DNA from: Amycolatopsis sp. GM8
GTDB lineage: Bacteria > Actinomycetota > Actinomycetes > Mycobacteriales > Pseudonocardiaceae
DNA length: 64,000 nt
NCBI RefSeq assembly: GCF_021653975.1
Contig: NZ_JAJKFK010000002.1
Span: 124,001-188,000, forward strand
Direction: 5' to 3'
Part shown: positions 1 to 9,232 of the stretch, piece after piece
Position numbering within the stretch: position 1 is the first letter of the stretch
Layout of the letters: every line of letters starts with the position of its first letter
Program-made: the position numbers and the translations under genes
The notes under the pieces: model-generated
Seen by the model: only the letters and a program-made list of their open reading frames with translations
What the model was told of the DNA's origin: nothing
Database searches by the model: none

Positions 1-3000
1 GGCCGTAGGACACTTCGCCTGCTGCCCCGGTTCGACACGATCAGCTACCGTGAACTGTGGTCACGGGCCGGCGCGATCGCGACCGAATGGCACCACGATC
101 CGCGGTCTCCGTTGCGGGCGGGCGAGTTCGTCGCCACCTTCGGGTTCGCCAGCACCGACTACGCCACGCTCGAACTGGCCTGCGTCCGGCTCGGCGCGGT
201 GCCGGTGCCATTGCACTCCAGCGTGTCCGCCGGCCACCTGAAGCCGATCATCGGCGAGACCGAGCCACGCATCCTCGCCACCAGCCTCGAACTGCTGGAC
301 ACCGCTGTCGAGTGCGCGCTGGGCGGCACATCGTTGCGCCGCCTGGTGGTCTTCGACTACCACCCGGACGTCGACGAGCAGCGCGAGAAGTTCGAGGCCG
401 CGCACCGGCGCCTGGCCGGCAGCCCGATCGTGCTGGACTCGCTGACCGGCGTCATCGCGCGGGGCAGGGCCCTGCCCTCGCTGCCGTTGTTCGAAGCCGA
501 CCCGGCGAGCAACCGGCTGGCGATGCTCATCTACACGTCCGGCAGCACCGGGACACCCAAGGGCGCCATGTACACCGACCGCATGGTCATCCCGGCGTGG
601 CGCGGGTTCTGGCCCCGGGTCGACGATCTGCCGATCATCGGCGTGCACTGCATGCCGATGAGCCACGTGTCGGCGCGCGCCGCCTTTTCCGGCACGCTCG
701 CGGCCGGTGGCATCGGGTACTTCACGGCGAAGAGCGACTTGTCCACGCTGTTCGAGGACATCGGACTGGTCCGGCCGACGGCGCTGCGGCTGGTGCCGCG
801 CATCTGCGACATGCTTTTCCAGCGGTACCAAAGCGAACTGGACCGGCGGGCGCCCGGCGAAGGGGTCGCGGCGGCGGTGCGCAAGGAGCTGCACGAGCGG
901 TTCCTCGGCGGCCGGGTTGTGTGGGCGGGCAGCGGGTCCGCGCCGATGACGGCCGAGATGTCCGCTTTCGTCGAGTCCTGTGTGGACGTTCCGTTGCAGG
1001 ACGGCTTCGGCTCGACCGAAGCGGGCCGGATCCTGATCAACGGGAAGGTGTGCCGGCCGCCGGTGCGCGACTACAAGCTCGCCGACGTGCCGGAACTGGG
1101 CTACTTCCGCACTGATTCGCCCCATCCGCGCGGTGAGCTGCTGGTCAAGACGGACGCCATCATTCCCGGCTACTACAAGCGTCCCGACGCGACGGCGGAG
1201 ATCTTCGACGCCGACGGCTACTACAAGACCGGCGACATCATGGCCGAGACCGGGCCGGACGAGCTGGCCTACGTCGACCGCCGGACGAACGTGCTGAAGC
1301 TGTCCAACGGTGAGTTCGTGGCGGTCTCACGGCTGGAGTCGGTGTTCGTCACCAGTCCCCTGGTCCGGCAGATCTTCGTCTACGGCAACAGCGAGCGCGC
1401 CTCCCTGCTCGCAGTGGTGGTGCCCACGGCCGACGCGCTCGAACGCGGTGAGGATGCGAAATCTCTGATCAGCGAGTCGCTGCGGCAGACGGCGAAGGAT
1501 GCGGGCCTGCGGCTTTTCGAGCTCCCACGCGACTTCCTGGTCGAGACCGAACCGTTCAGCACCCGGAACGGCCTGCTGTCCGACGTCCGGAAACTGGTGC
1601 GCCCCAAGCTGAAGGAGCACTACGGCGAGCGCCTCGAAGGGCTGTACGCCGAGCTCGCCGAGCGGGAGGCCGACGAGCTGAGCGCGCTGCGCCGAACCGG
1701 GCGGCAGCAACCGGTGCTCGACACCGTGTTGCGGGCGGCCCAGGCGATGCTCGGGTGTGCGAGCACCGAGTTGAGCGGCGAGGCGCACTTCACCGATCTC
1801 GGCGGCGATTCCCTGTCGGCGCTGTCTTTTTCCTCCCTGCTCAAGGAAATCTTCGGGATTGACGTTCCGGTGGGCGTCATCGTCAGCCCCGCCAACGACC
1901 TGCGGCAGCTGGCGAACCACATCGAGACGGCACTGGAGCCCGGGCCGGACCGGCCGACGTACGCGAGCGTGCACCGGTCCGGGAGTGTGCGGGCCAGTGA
2001 GCTGACGCTGGAGAAGTTCATGGACGTCACCGCACTCACCAGAACGCCACCGGACAGCTCCGTCCACACTGTCCTGTTGACCGGCGCGAACGGTTACCTC
2101 GGCCGGTTCCTGTGCCTGGAATGGCTGGAACGACTGGCGCCTCGGGGTGGCCGGCTGATCTGCCTCGTCCGGGGCAGCAGCACCCCCGCCGCGCACCGGC
2201 GGCTCGCCGGCGCGTTCGACAGCGGGGACCCGGAGTTGTTGCGCCGCTTCGAGAAACTGGCCGCGGAGCAGCTGGAGGTGCTCGCGGGTGACGTCAGCGA
2301 ACCTGCCCTCGGCCTCGACGAGGAGACGTGGCAGCGGCTGGCCCGCACGGTCGACCTGATCGTGCACCCGGCCGCGCTGGTCAATCACGTGCTGCCGTAC
2401 GAGCAGCTGTTCGGTCCCAACGTGGTGGGCACGGCGGAGTTGATCCGGATGGCGCTGACGACGCGGATCAAACCGTTCACCTTCGTGTCGACGATGGGGG
2501 TGATCTCCGCGCAGACTTCGACCACCTACGAGGATGCCGACATCCGGCGCGCCAGCCCGGTTCGCGAACTCGACCAGAGCTACGCAAACGGTTACTCGAC
2601 GAGTAAATGGGCGGGCGAGGTGCTGCTTCGGGAGGCGCACGAGCGGTTCGGCCTGCCGGTGGCGGTGTTCCGGTCGGACATGATCCTCGCGCACAGCCGG
2701 TATTCCGGACAGGTGAACGTTCCCGATGTCTTCACCCGCTTGCTGTTCAGCCTCATCGCGACCGGCGTCGCGCCGCGGTCCTTCTACCTGGGTGACAGCG
2801 AGCGCGCACACCACGGCGGGCTGCCGGTCGACTTCACCGCGGAGGCCGTCACGGTGCTCGGCGAGCAGGCCACGGAGGGCTACCGCACCTTCAATGTCAT
2901 CGACCCGCGCGGCGGTGTCTCACTCGACGTGGTCGTGGACTGGCTCATCGACGCCGGCCACGCCATCGTGCGGATCGACGACTACGACGAGTGGTACGCG

Positions 3001-3258
3001 CGCTTCGAGACCGCGATCCGGGCGTTGCCGGAAAGGCAGCGAAGGCACTCGTTGCTGCCGCTGCTGCACGCGTTCCGCGATTCCCGCGCCGCCATCGGCC
3101 GCACCAGGTTCCCCGCCGACCGGTTCCGCGCGGCTGTCCAGGCGGCCAAAATCGGCGCAGAGCAGGATATTCCGCACGTATCGGCTTCGCTCATCCGCAA
3201 GTACGGCACAGACCTGCGAGGGCTGGGCACGCTCAGCCAGCGGCGTTCCCGCGGATGA
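1..3258 (+). CDS. car: Carboxylic acid reductase (A-T-R), 5' truncated by window
   Basis: The product reduces a carboxylic acid to the aldehyde using ATP and NADPH. The frame is open from base 1, so the start lies upstream; 1085 residues are visible and the family is about 1170. In order: an AMP-forming adenylation domain with the P-loop [11 protein letters not shown] near residue 178 and YYKTGD near 410; a carrier domain with LGGDSLSAL near 600, whose Ser takes phosphopantetheine; and an NADPH reductase domain with TGANGYLG near 694 and a YSTSK catalytic pair near 865. It needs a phosphopantetheinyl transferase, and none is in the window. The 3' end overlaps the convergent TetR gene by 26 bp. 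Substrate is not readable; the aromatic-catabolic setting suggests an aryl or fatty acid. Confidence 0.93.
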
Positions 3259-4811: not shown

Positions 4812-5495
4812 ATGCGTGTGCTGATCGTCGAGGACGAGCCCTACCTGGCCGAAGCCATCCGCGACGGGCTCCGCCTGGAGGCGATCGCCGCCGACATCGC
4901 GGGCGACGGCGACACCGCGCTGGAGCTGCTGGGGGTCAACGCGTACGACTTCGCCGTGCTCGACCGCGACATCCCCGGGCCCTCCGGCGACGAGATCGCC
5001 AAACACATCATCGCCTCCGGCAGCGGGATGCCGATCATCATGCTCACCGCCGCCGACCGGCTCGACGACAAGGCGTCCGGGTTCGAGCTCGGCGCCGACG
5101 ACTACCTCACGAAACCGTTCGAACTCCGAGAGCTGGTGCTCCGGCTCAGGGCACTCGACCGCAGGCGCGCGTACAGCAGGCCGCCGGTGCGGGAGATCGC
5201 GGGCCTGCGGCTGGATCCGTTCCGCCGCGAGGTCTACCGCGACGGGCGTTACGTCGCGCTCACCCGGAAACAGTTCGCCGTGCTCGAAGTTCTGGTCGCC
5301 GCCGAAGGCGGTGTCGTCAGCGCCGAAGAACTCCTGGAGCGGGCATGGGACGAGAACGCGGACCCGTTCACCAACGCCGTGCGCATCACCGTCTCGGCCC
5401 TGCGCAAACGGCTCGGCGAACCGTGGATCATCGCCACCGTGGCCGGCGTCGGCTACCGCATCGACACCGGACACGCGGGAGTGGACCGTGGATAG
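4812..5495 (+). CDS. vanR: VanR glycopeptide-resistance response regulator
   Basis: An OmpR/PhoB-type response regulator of 227 aa that activates the van genes when phosphorylated by VanS. The receiver domain (1-115) has acidic E7/D8, phosphoacceptor Asp51 in VLDRDIPG, the MLTAAD Thr region and the KPFE lysine at about 102. The winged-helix domain (about 130-220) contains LTRKQFAVLEVL and ends in VGYRID. The whole sequence reads very close to the Streptomyces coelicolor VanR I know from the literature. The gene overlaps vanS by 8 bp. A direct-repeat motif just upstream, also found before vanH, suggests autoregulation. Confidence 0.95.
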   Translation: MRVLIVEDEPYLAEAIRDGLRLEAIAADIAGDGDTALELLGVNAYDFAVLDRDIPGPSGDEIAKHIIASGSGMPIIMLTAADRLDDKASGFELGADDYLTKPFELRELVLRLRALDRRRAYSRPPVREIAGLRLDPFRREVYRDGRYVALTRKQFAVLEVLVAAEGGVVSAEELLERAWDENADPFTNAVRITVSALRKRLGEPWIIATVAGVGYRIDTGHAGVDRG

Positions 5496-6624
5496 GCAGC
5501 CCGGTTTGAGCATTCGCCTCAAGCTCACCTTCAGCTACGCGGCGTTCGTCATGGTCGCCGGCGCCTTGCTCCTCGCCGCCGTGTGGGTGTTCCTGCTGCG
5601 CTACGTGCCCGAAGTGATCCGCCTGCCCGAAGGGTTCCCCATCCCCCGCGGGCCGAACGTGCCCAACCGGTCCGATCTCGTGCGCGCCTTCGTCCCGCGA
5701 GCGGGCGTAGTGCTGGCGTTCCTGCTGGTGTTCGGTCTCGTGGGCGGGTGGCTGCTCGCCGGTGGCATGCTCGCGCCGCTGACCCGCATCACCCATGCCA
5801 CCCGCCTGGCCGCGAACGGGTCACTGTCGCACCGGATCCAGCTGGAAGGGCAGCAGGACGAGTTCCGCGAACTCGCCGACGCCTTCGACACCATGCTCGC
5901 CCGGCTCGAAGCGCACGTCGCCGAACAGCAGCGGTTCGCCGCCAACGCCTCCCACGAACTGCGCACCCCACTGGCGATCACGCAGGCACTGCTCGACGTC
6001 GCCCGCAACGATCCGAACCGCGACACCGGCGAACTCATCCAACGCCTCCAGTTCGTCAACACGCGCGCGATCGACCTCACCGAAGCGATGCTCCTGCTCA
6101 GCCGCGCCGACCAGCGGTCCTTCACCCCGGAACACGTCGACCTGTCCCTGATCGCCGAAGAAGCCACCGAAACGCTCCTCCCCCTCGCGGAAAAACGCGG
6201 CCTCACCATCGAGACCTCCGGCGAGATCGCCCACGCCATCGGCTCGCACGCGCTGTTGCTGCAGATGACGACGAACCTCGTGCACAACGCGATCGTGCAC
6301 AACCTGCCCGAACACGGCGCGGTGTGGGTCGCGACCAGCGTTCATCCCGGAACCGTGGTGCTCACCGTCGAAAACACCGGCGAGCAGCTTTCCCAGCACG
6401 TGGTTTCCACGCTCGTCGAGCCGTTCCAGCGCGGCACCAAACGCATCCGCACCGACCACGCCGGTGTCGGCCTGGGCCTGGCGATCATCAAGAGCATCAC
6501 CCAGGCCCATGACGGCACGCTCACCCTCACGCCCCGCCCCGACGGCGGGCTCCGGGTCACCGTTCACCTGCCCGCCGCTCCCTGCGATCCCGTGATGGGG
6601 AAATCGAAATACGTGTCCGGATAA
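5488..6624 (+). CDS. vanS: VanS sensor histidine kinase
   Basis: A membrane kinase/phosphatase (378 aa) that senses glycopeptide action and controls VanR. Transmembrane helices span about 14-39 and 73-93 around a short external loop of about 33 residues, followed by a HAMP segment. The dimerisation H-box FAANASHELRTP has His156; the ATP domain shows NLVHNAIVHN (N box) and GVGLGLAI (G box). The GTG at 5488 overlaps the vanR stop region, giving translational coupling. The 3' end runs 61 bp into the convergent vanX gene. The loop composition may set which glycopeptides induce, but that cannot be read here. Confidence 0.94.
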   Translation: MDRQPGLSIRLKLTFSYAAFVMVAGALLLAAVWVFLLRYVPEVIRLPEGFPIPRGPNVPNRSDLVRAFVPRAGVVLAFLLVFGLVGGWLLAGGMLAPLTRITHATRLAANGSLSHRIQLEGQQDEFRELADAFDTMLARLEAHVAEQQRFAANASHELRTPLAITQALLDVARNDPNRDTGELIQRLQFVNTRAIDLTEAMLLLSRADQRSFTPEHVDLSLIAEEATETLLPLAEKRGLTIETSGEIAHAIGSHALLLQMTTNLVHNAIVHNLPEHGAVWVATSVHPGTVVLTVENTGEQLSQHVVSTLVEPFQRGTKRIRTDHAGVGLGLAIIKSITQAHDGTLTLTPRPDGGLRVTVHLPAAPCDPVMGKSKYVSG

Positions 6625-7196
6625 GGCTCGTCCCGCAGCGTGTAATGCCACCACTCCCACGGGTATGACCGGAAGCCGCAGGCCTCCATGATGGCGCACA
6701 GGGCTTGCCGGTTCCTCGCTTCGACCTGCGTGATCCCCGCCGCGCCGTGATGAGAGATCGGATCCATCAGGTCATGGTCACCGCCCATGGGCGAAAGCTC
6801 GCCGGTGGCCAGTTGATACAGCGTCAAATCGACCGTGCCGCCCCGGCTGTGGCCCGATTTGGCGGCTACATATCCTTTCTCGAACATCGCCGATCGGTCG
6901 ATATTCGGATAGTGCCGCGGCTTCGTCCGGCCGTCCTCCGGCTGTTTCGACCAGCGCAGGAAGTGGTCGACGGCGCGTTGCGGGCGGTAGCCATCCCAAA
7001 GCAGCAGGCCGAAGCCGAGGGATTCGGCCTTTTCCCGCGCCCTTTCCAAGGCCGCGCACAACGCCCTGGTACCGACGATGCGATTCGCCAGGTAGCCGTC
7101 CACCGGTTTGCCGGTGAAGTTGTCCCACGTGGTGTACTTGGCGTCCCAGCGCACTCCGGGCACGAACTCGTCCACGAAGACGAAGTCGTCTTTCAT
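6564..7196 (-). CDS. vanX: VanX D-Ala-D-Ala dipeptidase
   Basis: A zinc dipeptidase that hydrolyses D-Ala-D-Ala so that only D-Ala-D-Lac enters the cell-wall precursor. It has 210 aa with every catalytic position at canonical VanX numbering: Arg71, zinc ligands His116 and Asp123 in GHSRGGTVD, Glu181 and His184 in EWWHY. The ATG overlaps the stop of the ligase frame in an ATGA, so the two are translationally coupled. The last ten or so residues run past the usual end and overlap vanS on the other strand by 61 bp. Cytoplasmic. Confidence 0.95.
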   Translation of the reverse strand: MKDDFVFVDEFVPGVRWDAKYTTWDNFTGKPVDGYLANRIVGTRALCAALERAREKAESLGFGLLLWDGYRPQRAVDHFLRWSKQPEDGRTKPRHYPNIDRSAMFEKGYVAAKSGHSRGGTVDLTLYQLATGELSPMGGDHDLMDPISHHGAAGITQVEARNRQALCAIMEACGFRSYPWEWWHYTLRDEPYPDTYFDFPITGSQGAAGR

Positions 7197-9232
7197 CGCA
7201 TTTTTCCCATCAGCGCCAACGAAACCATCCGGTCGAGCACGTCGGCGAGCGACAGCCCCGCGGCCGCCATCATTCTGGGATAACGGCTGTACGAGGTCAT
7301 CCCGGGCAACGTGTTGACCTCGTTGAGGACGACCTGACCATCCTCTTTCAGGAACATGTCCACCCGCGCCAGTCCCCGGCAGCCGAGGGCTCGGTAGATG
7401 GTCTTTGCTGTTTCCTGGACCAGCGAGCGGGACTCGGCCGAAATGTCCGCCGGAACGATCGGTGTCGAGTTCTCGGAACCGGTTTCGGGCGTACTCTCCT
7501 GATGGATTCGGAAAAAGCCATGAGACAGCGCGATCCGGTCCACCTCGCCGGCGATCAAGTCCAGATCGTTCCCCAAGATGGCGCAGCCGACCTCGCTGCC
7601 GGCGACGGCTTCCTCGATCAGCACCTTCGAGTCGTACTGCCGTGCGGTCTCCACCGCGCTCGGCAGTTCTTCTTTCCGCGACACCTTGCTGACGCCGAAC
7701 GACGACCCCGAACGGGCCGGCTTGACGAAGACGGGATAGGTGAGCCGCTCGGGATCGATGTTCTCGTTCGCGGCGACGGTCCAGAAATTCGGCGTCGCGA
7801 TTCCCGCGCTGCGCGCGACCAGGTAGGCGAGGGATTTGTCCATGCACAGGGCGGAACTTTGGATATCGCAGCCCGCGTAGGGGATGCCGGAGAGTTCCAG
7901 CAAACCCTGGATCGCCCCGTCCTCGCCGAGTTTGCCGTGCAGGACGGGCAGCACCAGGTCCAGCTCGATCGTTTCGTATTTTCCCTGGTCCAGCACCAGT
8001 AATCCGCGCGTGCTCCGGTCCGGCGACAGCACGACCGGACGGCCGTTTTGCCACTGGTCGTCCACGCCGTCACAGAGCTTCCACGCGCCGTCCTGCGTGA
8101 TCCCGATGTAGTACGGTTCGTATTTTCCGACATCGAGGTTTTTGGCGACCTCGCGCGCGGACTTGACGGAGACAGGGTGCTCCTCGGAGCAGCCCCCGAA
8201 CATGATGCCGATTTTCACCCTAGTCACACTGACCCCATTTTCGAATTTCAGGCAGTTGATGATCGAGTTCTCGACGGTGTCCCGCAGCGCGTGATCCGTG
8301 TAGTAGGCGGTGTGCGGACTGATGATCACGTTGGGCAATTCCTGCAGCCGCACCAGCGCTTTGCTTTCAATGGCCTTGTTTCCACGGTCGGCGTAGAAGA
8401 TTCCTTCCTCGCCTTCGAGGACGTCCAACGCCGCACCGCCCAATCGGCCGCTTTCCAGTGCCGCAAGAAGGGCCTCGGTATCGAGAAGTGAGCCGCGCCC
8501 GGTATTGACGATGAACGCGCCGCGCTTCATCTGCTCGATACGTCGCCGATTCAGGAGATGGTGCGTGTCCGCGGTGAGCGGCGTGTGGAGCGTGACGATG
8601 TCGCTCTGCCGCAACAGTTCGTCGAGAGGAACGTAGTCGGCAGAGGTACTCGGACGGGTGTCATGGGCGACTATCCGGCAGCCGAAGCCCCGCAGCCTGT
8701 CCATGACCGCCGCGCCGATGCGTCCAGTTCCGACGACCCCGATGGTCAGATCACGCAGTTCTCTCCCGCGTACATCGTGCAATCGGTAATCATGAACATC
8801 CGCACGGCGAATGGTGGATTTCGCCTGGCGCACCGCCATCAACATCAGCATCAGCGTGTAATCGGCCACACTGTCCGGCGAATAGACGACATTCCCGACA
8901 GAAATGCCGACACTCACCGCGTACGTCACGCTGAGATGGTTATAGCCGATGCTTCTGGTGGAGATGTACCGCACACCGGCCTGGCTGAGCGCACGAAGTG
9001 TGGCGTCCGTGATCCGGGTCTTGTGCCCCACACTGATACACCGGTTTCCGGCCGCCAGTTCGGTATTGGCTTCGGAGACCGCTTCCTCGGTGATGGTCGG
9101 CAGCACGCCGAAGCGCGGCGCCATCTCCCGGAACAAAACGGCCTCGTCCTGCCCGCAGCCATAAATCGTGATCCCCGAGGACGCCAGCGACACGGCGCGG
9201 CCCGCCGTTCGCGCGGGTTCGCTGTAGGTCAT
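7193..9232 (-). CDS. vanH/vanA: VanH-VanA fusion: D-lactate dehydrogenase plus D-Ala-D-Lac ligase
   Basis: One open frame of 679 aa carries two normally separate enzymes. Residues 1-335 are VanH, which reduces pyruvate to D-lactate: NAD loop GTGRIG at 168-173, Arg246 in NTGRGS, His307 in SPHTAY. Residues 336-679 are the ATP-grasp D-Ala-D-Lac ligase VanA, beginning VTRVKIGIMFGGCSEEH, with the omega-loop GFFRIHQE and the NEVNTLPG motif. No stop separates them and there is no linker. An internal GTG at 8227, five bases after GGGG, could also start a free ligase of 344 aa. An out-of-frame TGA overlaps that GTG (GTGA), the usual coupling signature here, so a 1-base change in vanH could have made the fusion. 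Start: ATG at 9232; a TTG at 9244 or GTG at 9193 are alternatives. Confidence 0.9.
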   Translation of the reverse strand: MTYSEPARTAGRAVSLASSGITIYGCGQDEAVLFREMAPRFGVLPTITEEAVSEANTELAAGNRCISVGHKTRITDATLRALSQAGVRYISTRSIGYNHLSVTYAVSVGISVGNVVYSPDSVADYTLMLMLMAVRQAKSTIRRADVHDYRLHDVRGRELRDLTIGVVGTGRIGAAVMDRLRGFGCRIVAHDTRPSTSADYVPLDELLRQSDIVTLHTPLTADTHHLLNRRRIEQMKRGAFIVNTGRGSLLDTEALLAALESGRLGGAALDVLEGEEGIFYADRGNKAIESKALVRLQELPNVIISPHTAYYTDHALRDTVENSIINCLKFENGVSVTRVKIGIMFGGCSEEHPVSVKSAREVAKNLDVGKYEPYYIGITQDGAWKLCDGVDDQWQNGRPVVLSPDRSTRGLLVLDQGKYETIELDLVLPVLHGKLGEDGAIQGLLELSGIPYAGCDIQSSALCMDKSLAYLVARSAGIATPNFWTVAANENIDPERLTYPVFVKPARSGSSFGVSKVSRKEELPSAVETARQYDSKVLIEEAVAGSEVGCAILGNDLDLIAGEVDRIALSHGFFRIHQESTPETGSENSTPIVPADISAESRSLVQETAKTIYRALGCRGLARVDMFLKEDGQVVLNEVNTLPGMTSYSRYPRMMAAAGLSLADVLDRMVSLALMGKMR

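What the first reader, a model, noticed from the sequence alone, without database searches (positions are those of the whole stretch)
7193..9232. VanH and VanA fused into one 679-aa protein
The D-lactate dehydrogenase runs in frame, without stop or linker, into the D-Ala-D-Lac ligase. The D-lactate maker and user would be physically joined. An internal GTG (8227) preceded by GGGG could also release free ligase. An out-of-frame TGA overlaps that GTG, the GTGA pattern used for gene coupling throughout this window, so a 1-base change in vanH may have created the fusion. In the van clusters I know, the two genes are separate.
Basis: partly seen in the sequence, partly recalled or inferred. Interest (0 to 1): 0.75.

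Follow-up and report, generated by a model that had tools for sequence, protein, structure and literature searches.

The report
Fused VanH-VanA resistance enzyme
In this actinomycete the enzyme that makes D-lactate and the enzyme that uses it for vancomycin resistance are read as one protein, apparently because a small deletion where the two genes usually overlap put them in one frame; the DNA should be resequenced before much is built on it.

Summary
On the minus strand, 9232-7193 is one open frame of 679 codons: a complete VanH D-lactate dehydrogenase running into a complete D-Ala-D-Lac ligase, with vanX overlapping behind it and vanRS beside it. In relatives the genes are separate and mostly overlap by a few bases in different frames. 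Of 85 distinct junctions, 56 have vanA one frame ahead of vanH, 24 two ahead, 5 in the same frame; only the window's is open through both. Its junction is net one base shorter than the commonest form. The junction frame changed at least 14 times on a tree of 82 pairs, so natural indels there are common. In 144 conserved genes (159 kb) of this assembly I found no clean one-base frameshift, which argues against, without excluding, a sequencing error. No other fusion appeared in six genome searches; one was printed earlier, for Ktedonobacter sp. SOSP1-52 (PMC9689679), with the same doubt. Most likely a recent natural fusion, probably functional, with some free ligase.

The parts
7193..9232 (-). 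fused vanH-vanA open frame, 679 codons plus stop
8228..9232 (-). VanH (D-lactate dehydrogenase) part
   Evidence: vanH_gen just above its cut-off
7193..8227 (-). VanA-type D-Ala-D-Lac ligase part; would be free VanA if started at GTG 8227
   Evidence: solved relatives 3se7, 1e4e
8216..8240 (-). junction: GTG 8227 = homologue of relatives' vanA start; TAG 8222-8220 = homologue of relatives' vanH stop, here out of frame; TGA 8226-8224 also out of frame
6564..7196 (-). vanX (D-Ala-D-Ala dipeptidase), start overlaps the vanA stop (ATGA)
   Evidence: (end of the frame), on its first 199 residues (dipept_VanX 398.4 bits, cut-off 320)
4812..5495 (+). vanR, closest to the VanR-O model
   Evidence: 455.8 bits, below that exception model's cut-off 505
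5311..6624 (+). vanS, closest to the VanS-O model; true start probably further in, as the match begins at residue 81
   Evidence: 515.8 bits, below that exception model's cut-off 720

Best explanation
A van cluster (vanRS, vanHAX) in an actinomycete, very probably an Amycolatopsis, in which a net loss of one base in the unconserved tail of vanH has turned the usual stop-start overlap of vanH and vanA into one continuous frame. VanRS-controlled transcription (inferred) would give mainly a 73.6 kDa protein that both reduces pyruvate to D-lactate and joins D-lactate to D-Ala; VanX removes D-Ala-D-Ala. The conserved internal GTG probably still yields some free 37 kDa ligase. Coupling by termination and reinitiation is replaced by covalent coupling. 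Shown: the frame, completeness of both halves, the homologous start and stop, the shortened junction. Inferred: that the base is really absent in the organism, that the fusion is made, that it is active, and that free ligase is made too.
For: Fused frame with both families complete. Both halves look constrained: at columns invariant in the other 72 sequences the window deviates at 0 in VanH and 1 in VanA (a Pro read as Val), against 0-2 and 0-3 for the others (that count dropped duplicates, five short or damaged loci, and 16 loci with a stop letter in the aligned stretch; in 10 of the 11 of these checked it is the natural end of vanA, in L099 it lies at the start of the vanH stretch). Junction indels are frequent in nature: 56/24/5 distinct junctions at offsets 1/2/0 and at least 14 changes on an 82-row tree, with strongly supported sisters that differ, e.g. 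L041/L049. No clean one-base frameshift in 144 conserved genes, 159,072 bp, of this assembly: 95% upper bound about 2 per 100 kb. Internal start kept, pairing within the relatives' range.
Against: Only one assembly of this species was available, and the difference lies near a short G run, where sequencing errors also fall. The out-of-frame TAG and the GTG are still intact, as expected of a very recent change or of an error. Fusion is rare although junction indels are frequent, which hints that fusion may be disfavoured. No expression or activity data. The fold prediction of the whole fusion failed (mean pLDDT 33.6), so compatibility of the two folds was not tested.
Confidence: 0.62

Rival explanations
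1. Sequencing or assembly error: the organism has the ordinary overlapping vanH and vanA, and one base was lost in the record.
For: The other 84 distinct junctions compared are unfused; the window's start and homologous stop are intact; the difference is a single base near a G run; the authors of PMC9689679 raised the same doubt for the Ktedonobacter case.
Against: 0 clean one-base frameshifts in 144 genes of this assembly bounds the error rate at about 2e-5 per base, i.e. at most about 5e-4 for a 27-base junction (though the finding was picked out because it looked odd); natural indels here are frequent.
Confidence: 0.25
2. Real fusion in DNA, but slippage at the GGGG (of the ribosome or of RNA polymerase) also releases free VanH at one of the two out-of-frame stops that follow within about 15 bases, so that fused and separate enzymes coexist.
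For: Both other frames meet a stop within a few codons of the run (TGA 8226, TAG 8222); the TGA overlaps the vanA start.
Against: A run of four G is short for efficient slippage (general knowledge); no evidence that the run is conserved as a signal; not testable here.
Confidence: 0.06
3. A real but harmful or neutral lesion: the fusion is poorly active and the cluster is on the way to decay.
For: Fusion is rare (1 of 85 distinct junctions); both enzyme families are usually oligomers, so a direct join could interfere (general knowledge).
Against: No other damage seen in vanH, vanA, vanX, vanR or vanS; the join lies between the last matched VanH residues and the first matched ligase residues.
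Confidence: 0.07

Closest known systems
vanHAX of Amycolatopsis, Streptomyces and other actinomycetes
   Same: gene order, full-length enzymes, vanA-vanX overlap, adjacent vanRS; VanH 67-80% and VanA 72-87% identical (damaged L104 left out)
   Different: there vanH stops inside or near the vanA start, in another frame; here the frame is continuous
vanH-vanA fusion mentioned for Ktedonobacter sp. SOSP1-52 (PMC9689679; passage seen)
   Same: vanH and vanA as one frame
   Different: another phylum; in the three Ktedonobacteria records compared here (L031-L033) vanH and vanA share a frame but an in-frame TAG separates them, so a fusion there would arise differently; the SOSP1-52 record itself was not seen here
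Putative VanY-VanZ fusions (PMC8698665; passage seen)
   Same: fusion of two van proteins
   Different: other partners

Membership tests
VanH D-lactate dehydrogenase | match above a curated vanH model cut-off, both 2-hydroxyacid dehydrogenase domains | tested here: met
   vanH_gen 542.9 vs 540 bits (vanH-Ac1, -Amyco, -Sc models match below their own cut-offs)
D-Ala-D-Lac ligase (VanA type) | match above the D_ala_D_lac equivalog cut-off | tested here: met
   611.3 vs 550 bits (named subtypes such as VanI, VanO, VanA fall below their own cut-offs); FRIHQE stretch aligns with VanA of 1e4e
VanX | match above the dipept_VanX cut-off | tested here: met
   398.4 vs 320 bits, on the first 199 residues
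vanHAX operon, ordinary form | vanH and vanA as separate genes | tested here: not met
bifunctional VanH-VanA enzyme | single polypeptide with both activities in the cell | not testable with these tools
   needs proteomics and enzymology
VanO-type resistance cluster | VanR and VanS above the VanO exception cut-offs | tested here: not met
   best models, but 455.8 vs 505 and 515.8 vs 720 bits

The most novel reading that the evidence does not exclude
A natural, active bifunctional VanH-VanA enzyme, fixed in this species: the first well-founded case of D-lactate production and use joined in one chain, raising local D-lactate at the ligase and tying the amounts of the two enzymes together.
Probability: 0.25. 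Interest if true: 0.55.

Novelty: new variant of a known kind. Interest (0 to 1): 0.4.

Why it matters
If real, it is a ready natural test of whether the common vanH-vanA gene overlap serves to keep the two enzymes in step, and whether D-lactate is handed from maker to user. If an error, it is a caution, since the other printed case that I found carries the same doubt.

Tried and rejected
Chance open frame: rejected, both halves are complete family members. A second close vanH-vanA pair in this genome: none among the matches listed for G000 (that list is cut; the other ligase matches listed are 33-39% identical).

Fusions elsewhere. In one search none besides the window; the crude word FUSED printed for L008, L009, L026, L027, L066 and L089 means only that the vanA frame stays open upstream, and these are in different frames from vanH. 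Family of the window: 150 of 390 genomes have a match at 1e-120, only the window's own spans both halves. Families of L035 (Streptomyces) and L034 (Plantactinospora): 32 of 394 and 35 of 340 genomes have a match at 1e-160, none spans both. Class and phylum samples at 1e-205: 394 and 396 genomes, only the window's own. Class of G781 (Ktedonobacter racemifer record): 47 genomes, three matches spanning both, each with a stop inside. Match lists are cut at the bottom, but a fusion would rank near the top; the samples overlap in part and are not the whole of any group above family. Of 411 plasmid records with a match the 40 listed each showed two pieces; the other 371 were not seen. Of 263 relatives in genome contigs only the best 80 were kept.

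Assembly quality. A first count without a coding filter (split frames 0 of 66 in G000; 2 of 98, 1 of 94, 1 of 98 in three relatives) gave many internal stops from shadow frames and was replaced: G000 1 of 144 split and 5 with an internal stop; relatives 1 of 176 and 7, 0 of 174 and 2, 0 of 70 and 0, 1 of 106 and 1. The split G000 gene lacks its N-terminal part in any neighbouring frame. Of the five G000 genes with a stop, three have it within five residues of the end of the alignment, one has stops at positions 11 and 106 of an 831-column alignment in one unbroken frame, and one sits in a short repeated alignment. I count none of these as a one-base shift; that is a judgement.

Structure. The single-sequence prediction gave pLDDT 33.6; an alignment meant for a second run seemed to misplace the VanH rows (39-45% identity to the fusion), so no second run was made.

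Papers. Searches; most listed papers were not opened. Passages only were seen of PMC8698665, PMC9689679, PMC11727664, PMC4229326 and PMC3323079. The Ktedonobacter mention is the only VanH-VanA fusion met in them.

Full report
What is there. The finding lies on the minus strand. From ATG 9232 the frame runs without a stop to TGA 7195-7193. Its first half is a complete VanH and its second a complete D-Ala-D-Lac ligase by Pfam and by NCBIfam cut-offs; the ligase half aligns almost end to end with two solved VanA ligases, 3se7 and 1e4e. vanX follows with an ATGA overlap, and vanR and vanS, nearest to the VanO models but below their exception cut-offs, lie on the other strand beyond it. The window is G000:C12:124001-188000. 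The genus is very probably Amycolatopsis: two same-genus genomes, G006 and G014, gave junctions identical to named loci L061 (A. deserti) and L063 (A. thermalba). The three van genes have G+C of 0.616-0.636 against 0.684 for the window.

How relatives do it. Of the 110 loci hold both genes (the other 13 lack one or hold no neighbouring pair). After 12 duplicates 85 junctions remain: in 56 vanA lies one frame ahead of vanH, in 24 two ahead, in 5 in the same frame. The commonest form is an eight-base overlap in which the vanA start codon is followed, one base on, by the vanH stop TAG. The five same-frame cases are the window, three Ktedonobacteria with an in-frame TAG between the genes, and the damaged Fodinicola locus L104. 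Only the window is open through both genes. Its GTG 8227 aligns with the relatives' vanA start, and its TAG 8222-8220 with the relatives' vanH stop, but its junction is net one base shorter in the unconserved vanH tail, so vanH does not reach that stop.

Real or error. On a tree of 82 vanH+vanA pairs the junction offset changed at least 14 times (quick method, 27 of 79 inner branches weak), so indels at this place are natural and frequent. To judge the assembly I compared conserved genes in about 420 kb of G000 with stretches of four relatives. In 144 genes (159,072 bp) one was flagged as split and on inspection lacked its N-terminal part rather than being shifted; five more held a stop letter, none of which looks like a one-base shift. 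Four relatives tested the same way had 1 of 176, 0 of 174, 0 of 70 and 1 of 106 flagged as split. The assembly is therefore not error-rich, but a single error cannot be excluded, and no second genome of the species was at hand. Both halves keep the columns that are invariant in relatives, but for one Pro-to-Val in the ligase.

How it would work. The overlap in relatives fits termination-reinitiation coupling (inference; PMC3323079, passages seen, says this of vanA-vanX). In the fusion the ribosome reads on, so the coupling becomes covalent. Free VanH is not expected unless slippage occurs; both other frames meet a stop within a few codons.

Rarity. No other fusion appeared in the searches or among the 40 of 411 plasmid records listed. 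One printed mention exists, Ktedonobacter sp. SOSP1-52 in PMC9689679, whose authors leave open an error of sequencing or annotation.

Verdict. A confirmed observation of a fused frame, most likely a recent natural one-base event in an otherwise ordinary vanHAX cluster. It is a new variant of a known kind, of moderate interest, with resequencing as the first need.

Noticed in passing
L031, L032, L033 (Ktedonobacteria), junction near 6996: vanH and vanA lie in the same frame with one in-frame TAG between them; this may bear on how the printed SOSP1-52 fusion arose.
   Followed up: partly
L010/L028 (G007:C1:3101516-3103969): vanA matches query residues 338-629 and 622-682 in two pieces about 1.4 kb apart, as after an insertion.
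   Followed up: no
L011/L029 (G003:C1:1222677-1225480): vanH matches in two pieces about 1 kb apart and vanA matches only to residue 588.
   Followed up: no
L104 (Fodinicola feengrottensis): vanH and vanA are damaged and matched only in part.
   Followed up: no
window 199-3258 +: AMP-binding plus NAD_binding_4 protein resembling a carboxylic acid reductase (likeness recalled); its true start may lie upstream, as the AMP-binding match begins at profile position 73.
   Followed up: no
window 6564-9232: vanHAX has lower G+C (0.616-0.636) than the window (0.684), as an acquired cluster might.
   Followed up: partly
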